From the NCBI RefSeq assembly GCF_027943725.1, contig NZ_AP025696.1, positions 62,001 through 126,000 of the forward strand: a stretch of DNA of 64,000 nt. Reading direction: 5' to 3'. Each line of letters starts with the position of its first letter. Positions within the stretch are counted from its first letter, which is position 1. The notes beneath the pieces were generated by a model, which saw only the letters and a list, made by a program, of their open reading frames with translations, made no database searches and was not told the DNA's origin. Source of the DNA: Nitrosophilus kaiyonis (GTDB taxonomy: Bacteria; Campylobacterota; Campylobacteria; Campylobacterales; Nitratiruptoraceae). The translations under genes were made by a program, and so were the position numbers. This document shows positions 3,599 to 60,218 of this stretch, piece after piece.

Positions 3599-3614
3599 AT
3601 GCACTCCTTTTTTG

Positions 3615-3687
3615 TAGGTGAGTAAGGTAAGTGAGTTTAGTAATGTGAGTAAGCTTTTATTATTTTACTTACTCAACCACTCACCTA
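3615..3687. repeat. Short-word repeat array with inverted halves, upstream of the psr-like operon
   Basis: GTGAGT recurs at about 13-14 nt steps in the left part and its complement fills the right part. TAGGTGAGT (3615-3623) pairs with ACTCACCTA (3679-3687), and TGAGTAAG (3646-3653) pairs with CTTACTCA (3668-3675), so a nested hairpin is possible. The rest of the gap (3688-3901) is AT-rich with no ORF and no clear promoter that I can name. Confidence 0.6.
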
Positions 3688-3901
3688 AATATAAGTTTAG
3701 CTTCTAACAAGCATAACTTTAACTAAAATAACGATTTTACCGCTACTTTGTAGCTATTAATAGATTAACATTACAAACTTAACTATAACTAAAATTAATA
3801 AATTTTTTGTAAATTAATATCTATTTTTTCTATTTTTGAGAAATATCTGCTAGATTAATAAAACATATTTAAATGCAAGATAAAAAAAATTGAAGAATTA
3901 T

Positions 3902-16551: not shown

Positions 16552-17475
16552 TTATTTTATGATTTTACCAAACTTTGACTTGTATCTTTCTATCATTGTT
16601 TCATTTCCTTTTAATCCACCCTGATGAATATATAAAAGTGGAGAATTTTTAGTAATTAGTGATGAGTTCATAAGAGTGATAAAACCTGTTGGATCATACA
16701 AAAGATCAAATTCAATACCTGTTTTTTCTTTTAACTCTAACCAAATCTCATATAACTCTTTATAAAGTTTGCCAAATTTATATTTTCTTGGAGGCTCAAT
16801 TATAACAGGATGAAATTTTTCATTTTTTTCAAGAGCAAAGAATTGCTTTTTGAGATACTCTTTGTCTCCTACGCAAGGGACTGTAAAAACTTGTAATTGG
16901 GAATTAGGAATTTGAAATTGGAATAGATTTTTTTGCAAAAAAAGTGCAGTTGTGCCAGTTCCAGATGGTAAAAATATATTTAATTTTTTTATATTTTTTT
17001 CATTTGCCCATTCAATAATCTCTTCTGCCAGTAAAGCAATTCCAAACTCTGCTTCTTTACATCTTCCCCCTTCTGGAATTATTAAAGTATCATCTTTTAT
17101 TTTACACTCACTTAATAGATTCTTATTCCCAATGTCCAATATCCAATGTCTAATGTCTAAAATTTTCATCCCATTCTCAAGAGCTGCCTTTAAGTTTCCA
17201 GAGGGATTTTCTAAAAGTTTTTCATTTATCCTTGTATAATATTCAAACTCCCACTTTTTCATTTTTGCTAAAACTGAAAGTGAATACATAGCATTGGATT
17301 GCATTGAACCATAAGATATAACTTTTTTTACTTTAGGAAAACTTTTTTTTAGAAAAAAATAAAATTTTCTTGCTTTATTTCCACTAAAATCTACATCGAT
17401 TAAATCATCTCTTTTTATATAAAAATTGTAGTTTTTAAATGAGAGTTTTTGTATAGGAGAGTTATTCAAAATCAA
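16552..17475 (-). CDS. PLP-dependent enzyme of the ACC deaminase/D-cysteine desulfhydrase family
   Basis: A 307-residue fold-type II PLP enzyme: RDDLIDVDFSGNKARK carries the cofactor lysine (Lys34), YGSMQSNAMYS is the ligand-binding loop and LPSGTGTTA the phosphate loop. Relatives deaminate 1-aminocyclopropane-1-carboxylate or desulfurate D-cysteine; the substrate is undetermined. Two stretches, residues ~105-116 (ILDIRHWILDIG) and ~184-196 (FQFQIPNSQLQ), are encoded by 7-nt repeat arrays and look like in-frame insertions. The start is TTG, with its ribosome site AGGA in the loop of a hairpin at 17471-17496. Confidence 0.65.
   Translation of the reverse strand: MILNNSPIQKLSFKNYNFYIKRDDLIDVDFSGNKARKFYFFLKKSFPKVKKVISYGSMQSNAMYSLSVLAKMKKWEFEYYTRINEKLLENPSGNLKAALENGMKILDIRHWILDIGNKNLLSECKIKDDTLIIPEGGRCKEAEFGIALLAEEIIEWANEKNIKKLNIFLPSGTGTTALFLQKNLFQFQIPNSQLQVFTVPCVGDKEYLKKQFFALEKNEKFHPVIIEPPRKYKFGKLYKELYEIWLELKEKTGIEFDLLYDPTGFITLMNSSLITKNSPLLYIHQGGLKGNETMIERYKSKFGKIIK
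16895..16925. repeat. Heptanucleotide array inside the PLP-enzyme gene (left-type)
   Basis: Four units starting AATT at 7-nt steps: AATTGGG, AATTAGG, AATTTGA, AATTGGA. The same words fill intergenic arrays at 41.3 and 60.1 kb. It keeps the reading frame and encodes residues ~186-196 of the host protein. Confidence 0.7.
17131..17160. repeat. Heptanucleotide array inside the PLP-enzyme gene (right-type)
   Basis: Four units at 7-nt steps: AATGTCC, AATATCC, AATGTCT, AATGTCT. These are complements of the GGACATT/AGACATT words in other arrays, so this array is inverted relative to the one at 16895. Seven-nt units give a 7-residue peptide period, visible as ILDI repeated. Confidence 0.7.
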
Positions 17476-22155: not shown

Positions 22156-22179
22156 TAATACCCTTGTATGTTGATATAT

Positions 22180-22318
22180 TAGACATTAGTTTCTTTCTTC
22201 TCGTGATTCGTAAATCATAATTAGTGATTATTGTCATTAGTCATCAGATTTATCTTACCAATGACTAATGACCAATGACTTAATGACTAATAACTTCTTA
22301 CTCTACTTAACTAAATCT
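22180..22318. repeat. Heptanucleotide repeat array with inverted halves
   Basis: Fills the gap between the pepD start and the host-attachment-like gene stop. The right half runs AATGACT, AATGACC, AATGACT and so on; the left half has the complement. GTCATTAGTCAT (22233-22244) pairs perfectly with 22261-22272. There is no ORF inside. Confidence 0.75.
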
Positions 22319-37452: not shown

Positions 37453-37971
37453 CTATCTAATTTTTATTTTTCTTTTTTTACCAACTTTTATCAATCTTGA
37501 TGGTTTTCCTTCAAAAAAGCCCCTAATATCTTCTACTATAATATCACACACCTTTATAGCAAAATTTTTATCAAATTTTTTACCTGACTCATTTGCAGAA
37601 GTTGAATACATCCACTCAAATTTTTTTAAAAAATCAAGATGATGCTTATCTTTTATAACTCTTATTGCTTTAGCGTTTGGATAAATAAATGTCGTTTTTT
37701 TTGCCCTTCTAATCTCTTTTTTAAATTTTTTTGGGACTCTTGAGAAATTTTTTAAAGTTTTAAAACTATCTACAGAGATTAAAAAAGGCTTATTTGGATC
37801 TCTTTTTTTAATATTAGAGAGTTTTTTTGCATTTTGAGATAAAAATCCCACAGTTGTATCAGTTTGTGCAAGATAGATTTTGTCAGGTTGAAGGTTGAAG
37901 GCTGAAGGCTGAAGGATTCTTTCCTTCTTCCTTCTCCCTTCTTCCTTCTCCCTTCTTCCTTCTCCCTTCAA
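37453..37971 (-). CDS. Short Sua5/YciO/YrdC-family protein with a repeat-encoded N-terminus
   Basis: From about residue 30 the sequence is a YrdC-type domain: YLAQTDTTVGFLSQNAKKL, KRDPNKPFLISV, TFIYPN and MYSTSANESGKKFD. YrdC/Sua5 proteins make threonylcarbamoyl-AMP for tRNA t6A; the short copies in this phylum may have that or another role. The first ~28 residues (Gly/Glu/Arg/Lys-rich) come from a repeat array; the only start in frame is a TTG at 37971, 3 nt after the carB stop. The original start codon seems to have been lost. Confidence 0.65.
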   Translation of the reverse strand: MKGEGRREKEEGRRKKERILQPSAFNLQPDKIYLAQTDTTVGFLSQNAKKLSNIKKRDPNKPFLISVDSFKTLKNFSRVPKKFKKEIRRAKKTTFIYPNAKAIRVIKDKHHLDFLKKFEWMYSTSANESGKKFDKNFAIKVCDIIVEDIRGFFEGKPSRLIKVGKKRKIKIR

Positions 37972-37974
37972 CCT
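37885..37974. repeat. Repeat array at the carB/sua5 junction
   Basis: The left half repeats GGTTGAA/GGCTGAA 7-mers; the right half holds three copies of the 14-mer TTCTTCCTTCTCCC (two heptamers). AGGTTGAAGG (37885-37894) is the exact complement of CCTTCAACCT (37965-37974). The array encodes the N-terminus of the Sua5-like protein on the minus strand. Confidence 0.75.
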
Positions 37975-40900
37975 CTACTCCTTCAAATAATCTTGCAAAG
38001 ATTTAGGTTTTAATTTTTCCTCTTTTAATTTTTTGATAGCCTCAGCGGCAACTCTTGCAGCTGCTAATGTTGTAAAATATGGTATATTAAATCTAAGTAC
38101 AGCCTCTCTTATCTTTTTAGCATCATCTTTACTTGCTTTATTATCACTAGTATTTATAGCTAAGGCAATTTCGCCATTTTTAATCATATCTTCTATATTT
38201 GGTCTACCTTCACTAATTTTTAAAACTCTTGAAGATTCAACACCATTTTCTTTTAAAACTTGATGGGTTCCTGAAGTAGCAACTATTTTAAATCCAAGAT
38301 CGATATACATTTTTGCAATATCTACAGCAAATGGCTTATCATAATCGGTTAATGAAAGAAATAGATTTCCATTAAGTGTCAAACGGTTACCTGCAGCAAA
38401 TTGCGCTTTTGCAAAGCTTATACCAAAATTATCACTTATTCCCATAACCTCGCCGGTACTTTTCATCTCTGGTCCCAAAATCAAATCAGCACCTATAAGC
38501 TTATTAAATGGAAATACCGCTTCTTTTACAGATATATGAGATTTAAGCTTTGGCTTTAATATTCCATTTTGCTCAATTACAATGTTATATTTGTCATAAA
38601 ATTTTAAAGCCTCTTTTAAATCGCCTTTTATCATAACTCTAGTAGCTACTTTTGCTAAAGGAAGACCTGTAGCTTTAGAAACAAAAGGAACAGTTCTACT
38701 TGCTCTTGGATTTACTTCAATTAGATAAACTTTATCTTTATAAATTGCATATTGAATATTTAAAAGTCCTTTTACTCCAAGTCCAAGGGCAATTGTCTTT
38801 GTTTGCTTTTCTATAGTTTTTAAAATTTCATCTTTAATAGATACTGTTGGCAAAGAGCAAGCGCTATCGCCAGAGTGAATACCAGCCTCTTCTATATGCT
38901 GCATTACTCCGCCTATATATACATCCTTTCCATCACTTATAGCATCAACATCAATTTCAATAGCATGGTCTAAAAATTTATCTATCAAAACAGGAGATTC
39001 ATTGCTTACACTTACAGCTTCATCCATATACTCTTTAAGCTCATTTTCATTGTAAACTATCCTCATAGCTCTACCACCAAGTACATAGCTTGGTCTAACA
39101 AGAACCGGATATCCAATATTTTCGGCAATTTTTAGAGCATCTTCTTTTGTTGTTGCAGTTCCATTTTCAGGTTGCAATAGATTGTTTTTTGTTACAAAAT
39201 CGCTAAATTTCTCTCTATCTTCTGCCAAATCAATAACTTTTGCGCTTGTTCCTACAATCTTTGCGCCTATTGTAGTTAAAGGTTTTGCAAGCTTTAATGG
39301 AGTTTGTCCCCCAAAATGAACAATAACACCATCTGGATTTTCAAGTTCAATAACACTTCTTACTCTTTCAAAATCGATAGGCTCAAAATATAAAATATCA
39401 CTTGTATCATAATCAGTTGAAACAGTTTCTGGGTTACAGTTGTACATAATTGTTTTTATTCCCATATCTTCAAGAGCAAAAGCAGCATGAACACAGCAGT
39501 AATCAAACTCAATCCCCTGACCTATTCTATTTGGCCCACCTCCAATAATTAAAACTTTTTTTTCACTCTCTAACTCGCTAACTTTCTCACTCTCTAACTC
39601 TCTAACTTCTTTTGATATATTTGTAGTTGAGTAAAGATATGGTGTTAATGCTTTAAATTCTGCTGCACAAGTGTCAACTTCATTATATTCATGTTCTATT
39701 TTTAGATTTTTTCTTGCATTATAAACATCATTTTCTGTTAAATTTGTATGCTCTTTTTCATTGATAAGCTTAGCAATCATTTTATCACTAAAGCCATATG
39801 TTTTTGCAACTCTTAAAAGCTTTTCATTTTGCAAAATATCCAAATCAATTCTTTTTTCAAAATCTACAATCTCTTCAATTTGATATAAAAACCATCTATC
39901 AATTTTACAAAGTTCATAAATATCTTCTACAGTTAAACCATTTCTAAAAGCTTCTGCAATGTAAAGAAGTCTTTTTTCATTTGGTCTTCTTATCTCTTTT
40001 TTTATAGTCTCAATATCAGCTTCAACTTTTTCAAAACCGCTAAGACCAGTTTCAAGTGAACAAAGGCCTTTTTGAATAGACTCTTTAAAAGTTCTACCAA
40101 TTGCCATTACTTCGCCAACACTTTTCATTGATGTTGTCAGTGTTGAATCAGCTTGAGGAAATTTTTCAAAAGTAAATCTTGGAATTTTTGTAACTATATA
40201 ATCAATCACCGGCTCAAAACTTGCTGGAGTTCCTGTGATATCATTTTTTATCTCATCAAGCGTATAACCAACTGCTAAAAGAGTAGCTACTTTAGCTATT
40301 GGATAACCAGTTGCTTTAGATGCTAAAGCTGAACTTCTACTTACTCTTGGATTCATCTCAATTACTGTCATTCTACCAGTCTCAGGATGAACAGCAAACT
40401 GAACATTACTTCCCCCAGTATCAACACCTATCTCTCTTAAAATTGCAAATGAGGCATCTCTCATTCTTTGATACTCTTTGTCTGTTAGAGTTAGAGCTGG
40501 TGCAACAGTTATAGAATCTCCAGTATGAACACCCATAGGATCAAGATTTTCAATAGAACAAACTATAATACAGTTATCCTCTTTATCTCTAATAACCTCC
40601 ATCTCATACTCTTTCCATCCAAGGAGGCTCTCTTCGATTAATATCTCATTTATTGGACTAGCTTCTAAACCTTTTGCAGCTAAAGTTTTAAATTCATCAA
40701 TATTATATGCAACTCCGCTTCCTCCACCAGCAAGTGTATATGAAGCTCTAATAATTAAAGGAAACCCTATCTCTTTTGCTGCTTCAACAGCTTCTTCTAA
40801 AGAGTATGCATATCTACTTTTTGGAAGGTCCATACCAATTTTTAGCATTGCTTCTTTAAATGCTTGTCTATCTTCACCTTTTTTAATAGCTTCTGGATCT

Positions 40901-41301: not shown

Positions 41302-41476
41302 GACATTAGTTATTGGACATTGGTCATTGGTAATTAGTAATTTGGAATTGGGAATTAATATAAGTATTAAGTTTTTAAATTATTACTATATACTAATTAT
41401 TTAATTATTAACTCTTAGCTCTCATTCACTATACTAACCTATCACTAATTCATATTAATGACTAATGTCTAATGAC
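41302..41476. repeat. Heptanucleotide array between mreC and carB
   Basis: The left part has ATT recurring every 7 nt for eight units (GACATT, AGTTATT, GGACATT, GGTCATT, GGTAATT, AGTAATT, TGGAATT, GGGAATT). The right end carries the complement; GACATTAGT (41302-41310) pairs with ACTAATGTC (41461-41469), 12 of 13 if extended. The centre is AT-rich with no ORF. Confidence 0.8.
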
Positions 41477-41478
41477 TT

Positions 41479-44514: not shown

Positions 44515-44690
44515 TAGACATCAGTCGGTAGTCCTTAGTAACTTTATTTCGTTATTCGTAATTAGTAATTAGTGTTAAGTTTTTTAAACTAACACTAACA
44601 CGATTCACTATCAATAAATTCTTAATTCTTAACTCTTACACTATCTATAAAACTCAATGATTAATGACTTAATGACTAATGACTTCTTGC
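44515..44690. repeat. Heptanucleotide array between lpxA and clpX
   Basis: TTATTCG, TAATTAG, TAATTAG, TGTTAAG run at 7-nt steps; TTAGTGTTA (44569-44577) pairs with TAACACTAA (44590-44598). The right end has AATGACTTAATGACTAATGAC words. It shares TTTCGTTATTCGTAATT with the next array. It lies inside a gene series that is normally one transcript. Confidence 0.78.
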
Positions 44691-45458: not shown

Positions 45459-45471
45459 TAATACTCCATAA

Positions 45472-45665
45472 ATTAGTCATTAGTCGTCAGCCTTTAGTCT
45501 TTAGACATTGGACACCGGCCATTTTGTTTCGTTATTCGTAATTCGTAAAACGTGATTGGTAATTGGAAATTAGCTTCTTCACAGCTTCACACCTTCTCCG
45601 CTTCCCTACTTATCCCCATTTTCTCACTTTCTCACTTCCTTACTCATCTTACTCAACTACTCACC
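45472..45665. repeat. Heptanucleotide array between fabZ and lpxA
   Basis: The clearest 7-nt phase in the window: ATTAGTC, ATTAGTC, GTCAGCC, TTTAGTC, TTTAGAC, ATTGGAC, ACCGGCC; then GTTATTC, GTAATTC, GTAAAAC, GTGATTG, GTAATTG. The right half is pyrimidine-rich (CTTCTCAC/CTTACTCA words). No ORF. Confidence 0.8.
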
Positions 45666-46140: not shown

Positions 46141-46226
46141 AAGTTGTCAAAATAGTTGAGTGGTTGAGTAGTTTCTTATATTACAATTTAACCACTCAAC
46201 TACTTAGCCACCCAACTAATCAACCA
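46141..46226. repeat. Inverted short-word array between queH and fabZ
   Basis: GTTGAGTGGTTGAGTAG words on the left and their complement on the right; TAGTTGAGTGGTT (46153-46165) pairs perfectly over 13 bp with 46190-46202. It resembles the array at 3615-3687 (GAGT/ACTC words). Confidence 0.75.
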
Positions 46227-46246
46227 TATTATTAAATTTCGATATT

Positions 46247-52704: not shown

Positions 52705-52877
52705 AAAACAAACTGCTTTGTTTTCGTGCCAAGCCGAAAGATATGAATATATGTGAGTCCGAAAAACAAGGTTTTTCGTGATGAACATATGAGTATCTGG
52801 TAGACATTGAAAAAAATCACAACTGTAAAATAGTTCGTGATTTTTGGTCATTTTATAAAGCCGACAGGCTTTAGAAA
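52679..52877. other. Multi-hairpin intergenic segment before panE
   Basis: Five stems lie in series. GGCTTGGCA (52679-52687) pairs with 52727-52735 and encloses AAAGCC/GGCTTT (52687-52702) and GAAAACAAA/TTTGTTTTC (52704-52725), a three-way layout. Next CGAAAAAC/GTTTTTCG (52760-52778) with outer ATATGT/ACATAT and GATA/TATC; then a 13-bp stem with one bulge (52812-52845); then AAAGCC/GGCTTT again (52857-52872). A 21-nt sequence around the first and last small hairpins is repeated with one mismatch (52687-52707, 52857-52877). It starts inside the ligase gene and ends 12 nt before the panE start. Confidence 0.6.
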
Positions 52878-60033: not shown

Positions 60034-60051
60034 TCAAAACCTTTTCATAAA

Positions 60052-60218
60052 AATTAGACATTAGGAATTGGGAATTAGCGTTAGTATTGGCATTGGTGGA
60101 AAGTTTTGAACTTATCACTAATACTATCACTATCCACTATCACTAATTTCTTCTCCACTATCCCGCTTCACTCCTTCACTGCTTCTCCGCTTATCACCTT
60201 ACCACCTACACCACTAAT
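60052..60218. repeat. Heptanucleotide array between the zinc-ribbon and Sel1 genes
   Basis: Left: TTAGACA, TTAGGAATTGGGAATTAG words; right: CACTAATACTATCACTATCCACTATCAC and CTTCTCCGCTT words, complementary in sense. TAGTATT near 60082 can pair with AATACTA near 60119. No ORF. Confidence 0.72.

What the first reader, a model, noticed from the sequence alone, without database searches (positions are those of the whole stretch)
41302..41476. Family of degenerate 7-nt-period arrays, usually as two inverted halves, scattered through the window
Arrays at 3.6, 22.2, 37.9, 41.3, 44.5, 45.5, 46.1 and 60.1 kb share words (GGTAATT, AGTCATT, GGGAATT and complements). Here ATT recurs every 7 nt for eight units, and the complement words close the array, giving perfect pairings of 9-13 bp in several copies. 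Units are too degenerate for simple slippage alone. They resemble the short tandem heptanucleotide families described in cyanobacteria, which I do not know as a described feature of Campylobacterota. How they arise, spread and stay palindromic is unexplained.
Basis: partly seen in the sequence, partly recalled or inferred. Interest (0 to 1): 0.78.

Follow-up and report, generated by a model that had tools for sequence, protein, structure and literature searches.

The report
Convergent seven-base repeat islands between genes
Roughly 200-270 short patches of imperfect 7- and 8-base repeats sit between the genes of this bacterium, always G-rich side first and with their repeat words in a fixed order; they have spread recently in this lineage, but what spreads them is unknown.

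Summary
Lag-7 arrays: 49 clusters versus 0 in Markov controls over 464 kb; the outer word ATTRGWS: 311 hits genome-wide versus 1 in the reversed control. I estimate 200-270 elements of 50-250 bp, mostly intergenic. (1) Polarity: the G-rich arm precedes the C-rich arm (55:1), whatever the flanking gene orientation; gaps without elements lack it. Unrelated word sets in other Campylobacterota and viral contigs show the same polarity (32:4). (2) Eleven word types follow one order from outside to centre (148 of 162 comparisons; shuffled maximum 114). (3) The arms of one element match each other no better than arms of other elements, so pairing is not maintained. Copies align at 72-82% and share a core found 18 times here and in none of four congeners: the family dispersed recently in this lineage. 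Orthologous gaps are mostly empty or hold a different array. No reverse transcriptase, Y1 transposase or Ku was detected. Best reading: a slippage-prone repeat family copied into gaps, probably by repair or replication template switching. It resembles the convergent GGGAATC heptamers of Xanthomonas. New variant of a known kind; the source of the polarity is unexplained.

The parts
41302..41357 (+). G-rich arm of the 41.3 kb element: continuous 7-nt register, units drifting ATTRGWC -> ATTRGTA -> ATTRGGA
   Evidence: Sequence; TRF; arm listing
41358..41400 (.). Core between the arms (TATTAAGTTTTTAAATTATTACTATATACTAATTATT), related to the TTAAGTTTTTAAATTATCACTAAA core of other copies
41401..41477 (-). 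C-rich arm (TTAACTCTTAGCTC ... CTATCACTAATTC ... AATGACTAATGTCTAATGAC): G-rich words on the minus strand, outer words nearest the gene
22178..22296 (.). Element between two co-directional genes; GTCATTA words and TTCGTGA words. G001 has an array of other words in the same gap
3610..3690 (.). Element with 8-nt words (GTGAGTAA/GTAAGTGA ... CTTACTCAACCACTCACC)
37885..37975 (.). Element AGGTTGA/AGGCTGA ... CCTTCTTCCTTCTC; shared with G001 and G003 at the edges but with different inner units, absent in G004
44519..44685 (.). Element in the clpX-lpxA gap; G001 and G003 have a different array there
45468..45662 (.). Element in the lpxA-fabZ gap (213 bp here; 2-12 bp and no array in G001, G003, G002)
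46150..46228 (.). Element with 8-nt words (AGTTGAGTGGTTGAGTAG ... AACCACTCAACTACTTAGCC) upstream of fabZ; longest perfect inverted repeat 13 bp; no array in G001/G003
60050..60201 (.). Element with core CACTATCCACTATCAC and 8-nt C-arm words; G001 has a different array in the same gap
16893..16923 (+). GGGAATT-type words in frame inside a coding loop of the 307-aa gene 16552-17475 (minus strand)
17125..17165 (-). ATTRGAC-type words in frame inside another loop of the same gene (peptide ILDIRHWILDIGN)

Best explanation
The 41.3 kb feature is one copy of a lineage-specific dispersed family of non-coding intergenic elements. Shown: each element is a chain of 7- or 8-nt words in a fixed order, running G-rich strand inward from both edges to a core; copies are alignable to one another; the family multiplied in this lineage after the split from its congeners; arms change by whole-unit gains and losses and by loss of modules. 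Inferred: a broken or stalled DNA end in a tolerant intergenic gap copies all or part of an existing element by repair or replication template switching at the repeated words, without a dedicated transposase. Many near-identical words allow jumps in register, which would explain missing modules, mixed arms and variable ends. Gene gaps tolerate the insert, and no host function is needed. Why both edges always carry the G-rich strand inward is not explained by copying alone, because unrelated word sets obey the same rule.
For: Copies align at 72-82% over 100-200 bp across arm, core and arm. One core (TATCACTATCCACTATCAC, up to 2 mismatches) occurs 18 times here and 0 times in four congeners; its copies differ in modules and in ends. 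One linear order of 11 word types fits 148 of 162 within-arm comparisons, shuffled maximum 114. Polarity 55 G-to-C versus 1; present in co-directional, convergent and divergent gaps (40/42, 6/6, 3/3) and absent from gaps without elements. Of 24 element gaps with a G001 orthologue, 17 lack an array-like gap there; lpxA-fabZ is 2-12 bp in three congeners. G001 and G003 (92-94% identical) differ by 7-, 16- and about 109-bp changes in arrays. No PF00078, PF01797 or PF02735 match in this genome.
Against: No near-identical pair of copies turned up in the 464-kb sample, so recent copying was not seen directly. No clean pre-insertion site at strain level was available, so a target duplication or short transposon ends cannot be excluded. 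Copying does not by itself explain why four other genomes and viral contigs with other words, often different in the two arms, show the same polarity (32:4). An unidentified transposase would leave much the same picture.
Confidence: 0.45

Rival explanations
1. Break-end extension: at a double-strand break both 3' ends are extended with G-rich heptamer repeats by an unidentified activity and then joined, like two telomere-type arrays fused head to head. This gives G-in polarity from both edges, independent words in each arm, and no target duplication.
For: Polarity holds for unrelated word sets in G077, G061, G241, G349 and viral contigs, 32 G-to-C versus 4 C-to-G. Left and right arms often carry different words and are not mutually matched. 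In Xanthomonas the convergent GGGAATC pairs are likewise always one plus, one minus (PMC4692102). Vertebrate interstitial telomeric repeats arise at break repair (PMC2246262, PMC8537989), and a bacterial telomerase-like tandem-repeat synthesiser, DRT10, has been described (PMC12632851).
Against: No PF00078 reverse transcriptase in this genome or in G061, G241, G349 and no Ku in any of 18 genomes. In the window's genome the modules have a fixed order and a shared core, which needs a template.
Confidence: 0.22
2. Plain polymerase slippage: each array grew independently where a chance heptamer seed lay, then decayed.
For: Shown to happen elsewhere: in an Escherichia albertii plasmid an array of 12 heptamers (GGACATT/AGACATT) stands where two E. 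coli plasmids have only AGACATTATACATT. Heptamer arrays are over-represented in bacteria and slippage is the published hypothesis (PMC4692102). Unit-sized differences occur between G001 and G003.
Against: Does not give a fixed order of 11 word types, a shared non-periodic core in 18 places, polarity, or 200-bp composite inserts in gaps that are 2-12 bp and seedless in relatives.
Confidence: 0.15
3. Non-autonomous transposon (MITE/REP-like) moved by a transposase that was not recognised or has been lost.
For: Alignable dispersed copies, lineage-specific burst, inverted-repeat character, empty orthologous gaps.
Against: Outer ends vary between copies (A, B, C, D, E, G or I words outermost); no target duplication could be seen; no Y1 transposase. 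DDE transposases were not surveyed.
Confidence: 0.13
4. Conserved regulatory RNA hairpins or terminators.
For: Some elements fold better than shuffles (41.3 kb z -7.1, 37.9 kb z -6.7, 46.1 kb z -6.6).
Against: 45.5 kb folds worse than shuffles (z +1.6); arms not co-maintained; no Rfam match; position follows gap counts except for few divergent gaps; not conserved at orthologous sites.
Confidence: 0.05

Closest known systems
GGGAATC / GGGGA(C/T)T heptameric repeats of Xanthomonas and Nostoc (Rehm et al. 2015, PMC4692102)
   Same: Intergenic heptamer arrays over the whole genome; 70-75 pairs per Xanthomonas genome in convergent orientation; under-represented between divergent genes; strong length and sequence variation between close relatives; no regulatory role found
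   Different: One G-quadruplex word family there. Here many graded words in a fixed order, few GGG runs, a shared core, and mostly different or empty orthologous gaps
TAACTGA direct repeats (MacGregor 2015, PMC4679880)
   Same: Intergenic heptamer arrays, sometimes mixed with other heptamers, occasionally inside reading frames, patchy across phyla
   Different: Single word, mostly just upstream of start codons, only one indirect repeat in BOGUAY
Cyanobacterial STRR heptanucleotide repeats (cited in PMC4692102)
   Same: 7-nt units in intergenic DNA; GTCATTR words also found on Nostoc plasmids
   Different: Usually described as simple tandem arrays; order and polarity not described in the texts I could read
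Interstitial telomeric sequences from break repair (PMC2246262, PMC8537989)
   Same: Short G-rich tandem repeats inserted at orthologous empty sites
   Different: Eukaryotic and made by telomerase; no reverse transcriptase was detected here

Membership tests
Heptamer tandem-repeat families of bacteria (STRR / GGGAATC type) | Tandem 7-nt units in excess over chance, mostly intergenic | tested here: met
   49 versus 0 lag-7 clusters; most elements lie in gaps between genes
Heptamer tandem-repeat families of bacteria (STRR / GGGAATC type) | Convergent pairing of arrays, as in Xanthomonas | tested here: met
   55 G-to-C versus 1 C-to-G
Heptamer tandem-repeat families of bacteria (STRR / GGGAATC type) | A single near-perfect repeat word | tested here: not met
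   Eleven word types, graded and ordered; 8-nt words too
REP elements with RAYT transposase | Y1 (TnpA-REP) transposase in the genome | tested here: not met
   No PF01797 match in the window's genome
MITE | Fixed terminal inverted repeats | tested here: not met
   Outermost words vary between copies
MITE | Target-site duplication | tested here: inconclusive
   Nearest empty sites are about 77% identical; boundaries cannot be placed exactly
Telomerase-like (DRT10) repeat synthesis | A reverse transcriptase in the genome | tested here: not met
   No PF00078 match in the window's genome; a very divergent enzyme is not excluded
Simple sequence repeat made by slippage | Local seed at the orthologous empty site | tested here: not met
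   lpxA-fabZ gap in G001, G002 and G003 has no such words

The most novel reading that the evidence does not exclude
Bacterial heptamer-array islands are scars of a general process in which both 3' ends of a broken or stalled chromosome are extended with G-rich repeat words before joining, giving a universal G-in polarity across unrelated bacteria, by an activity not yet described.
Probability: 0.15. Interest if true: 0.9.

Novelty: new variant of a known kind. Interest (0 to 1): 0.6.

Why it matters
Bacterial heptamer arrays have been treated as simple slippage products or possible regulatory sites. The ordered vocabulary, the polarity independent of genes and words, and the dispersal with a shared core show that slippage alone cannot make them, and give three countable features that any mechanism must explain. 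In this genome the elements take up a sizeable share of intergenic DNA and also reach into a protein-coding gene, so they shape operon spacing and protein loops.

Tried and rejected
Reverse transcriptase (PF00078), Y1 transposase (PF01797) and Ku (PF02735) as helpers: none in this genome. Array-rich genomes outside this genus do not consistently have them either. Rfam: nothing in the window. Palindrome maintained by pairing or gene conversion: rejected by the arm-matching test. Gene-edge base composition as the cause of polarity: rejected, because gaps without elements lack it. The array-like stretch in carB (39559-39608): a length-variable coding linker, C-rich words only, not such words in relatives; excluded. 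Array words in E. coli chromosomes and plasmids: no match, but BLAST masking of simple repeats makes this weak. The reversed-control column was computed wrongly (it included minus-strand hits); the corrected control for the main word is 3 versus 143.

Full report
What is there. The window is positions 62001-126000 of a closed 1.77-Mb genome, 29.5% G+C in the window. Its nearest relatives by carB are Campylobacterota. At 41305-41357, in the gap between carB and mreC, ATT recurs eight times every 7 nt, with complementary words at 41456-41477. Over 464 kb of this genome, 49 lag-7 clusters stand against 0 in an order-3 Markov control. The outer word pattern ATTRGWSATTRGWSATT has 311 hits with at most one mismatch against 1 in the reversed control.

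Anatomy. In 464 kb I delimited 72 clusters of at least three word hits, a few of them coding. About 8 true elements in the unbiased window suggest some 220 per genome; the wider, partly hit-biased sample suggests up to about 270. In 55 of 57 two-armed clusters the G-rich arm comes first and the C-rich arm second; one is reversed and one mixed. The reversed one is the carB coding linker, which relatives do not share as an array. From outside to centre the commonest arm drifts in an unbroken 7-nt register: ATTRGWC, ATTRGTA, ATTRGGA, ATTAGTG, then TTAAGNG or GTGATAG words and a core. A second set has 8-nt words (AGTTGAGT, GTGAGAAA, GTGAAGC) and GGTTGAA. One total order of all 11 word types satisfies 148 of 162 within-arm comparisons; the best order on shuffled arms reaches at most 114.

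Polarity belongs to the elements. Gaps with elements have a positive G-to-C index in 40 of 42 co-directional, 6 of 6 convergent and 3 of 3 divergent cases; gaps of 80-500 bp without elements do not (17 of 42, 4 of 9, 5 of 23 positive). Other genomes of the order (G077, G061, G241, G349) and viral contigs carrying other words, often different words in the two arms, show 32 G-to-C against 4 C-to-G neighbours. The same convergent arrangement is reported for Xanthomonas GGGAATC repeats (PMC4692102).

Not a maintained palindrome. Within an element, the left arm matches its own right arm no better than the right arms of other elements of the same class (mean percentile 0.43 for the commonest class; within-class permutation p = 0.28). 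Perfect pairings in the window range from 5 to 13 bp, and only two exceed all shuffles.

History. Elements align with one another at 72-82% over 100-200 bp. The core TATCACTATCCACTATCAC occurs 18 times in this genome and never in four congeners; its copies share the order but differ in which modules they keep and where they end. Of 24 element gaps with an identifiable G001 orthologue, 17 lack an array-like gap there, while 7 have one; gaps without elements in G000 rarely have one in G001 (5 of 104; Fisher p = 0.0015). So gaps are reused. Examples: lpxA-fabZ is 213 bp here and 2-12 bp in three congeners; the 60.1 kb gap holds different arrays in G000, G001 and G003; the 37.9 kb array is shared with G001 and G003 at its edges but not inside. 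G001 and G003, 92-94% identical, differ by 7, 16 and about 109 bp within arrays.

Inside a gene. The 307-aa product of 16552-17475 (minus strand) carries array words in frame in two loops. Related species of the same family have G-rich words at the first and C-rich words at the second, but often different words; G002 and G035 have neither.

Slippage does occur. In an Escherichia albertii plasmid an array of 12 heptamers stands where two E. coli plasmids have AGACATTATACATT. That shows local growth of one of these very words in an unrelated organism, so shared words between phyla are not by themselves evidence of transfer.

Mechanism. The data require copying, because of shared order and core, plus unit-sized slippage. 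No reverse transcriptase (PF00078), Y1 transposase or Ku was found in this genome, and ends are variable, so I favour template switching at broken or stalled DNA ends; this step is inferred. The polarity across independent word sets is better explained by extension of both 3' ends with G-rich repeats, as in break-repair telomeric inserts (PMC2246262) or a DRT10-like enzyme (PMC12632851), but no such enzyme was detected. I leave that as the main open rival.

Known or new. Heptamer arrays, convergent pairs and their avoidance of divergent gaps are known from Xanthomonas (PMC4692102), and TAACTGA arrays from several phyla (PMC4679880). I found no description of ordered, graded multi-word elements with a shared core, nor of this family in Campylobacterota, in the open literature I could search. 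I file it as a new variant of a known kind.

Noticed in passing
16552-17475 (minus strand): A 307-aa enzyme-like protein (no Pfam match) carries array-derived peptides in two loops; homologues in the same family have other array words at the same loops, G040 also a further insert.
   Followed up: partly
39559-39608 in carB: A length-variable, low-complexity linker in carB with CTCTAACT-type words, longer here than in congeners; probably ordinary coding variation.
   Followed up: partly
L138:8788-8968; L104:18866-18884; L106:9674; L235:18416; L253:3914: A second dispersed repeat, about 180 bp, bounded by CTCTGAAAAATTACAAATT and its complement, present in G001 and absent in G003 at one site; sometimes abuts the arrays.
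   Followed up: no
52711-52870; L109:2070-2088; L112:14197-14215: A third dispersed palindromic repeat around CGAAAAACAAGGTTTTTCG, twice lodged inside array elements.
   Followed up: no
L127-L130 (G001), gap clpX-lpxA: A repeat TGCTCGCTCACGAAACTCCTTGAGTTTCGGACTCGCATATACTACAAGC occurs twice in the clpX-lpxA gap in G001 and G003.
   Followed up: no
L187-L189, L313-L320 (G241, G349): Array-rich species with many perfect heptamer words (AGTGAGG, GTCGGCA, GATGGAA, GGTGAAT) in clusters such as GGGCC; good material for finding fresh insertions.
   Followed up: partly
L197:1514-1605 (E. albertii plasmid pEA4_88): Array of 12 GGACATT/AGACATT units with a near-empty orthologous site in E. coli plasmids, a clear natural case of heptamer expansion.
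   Followed up: yes
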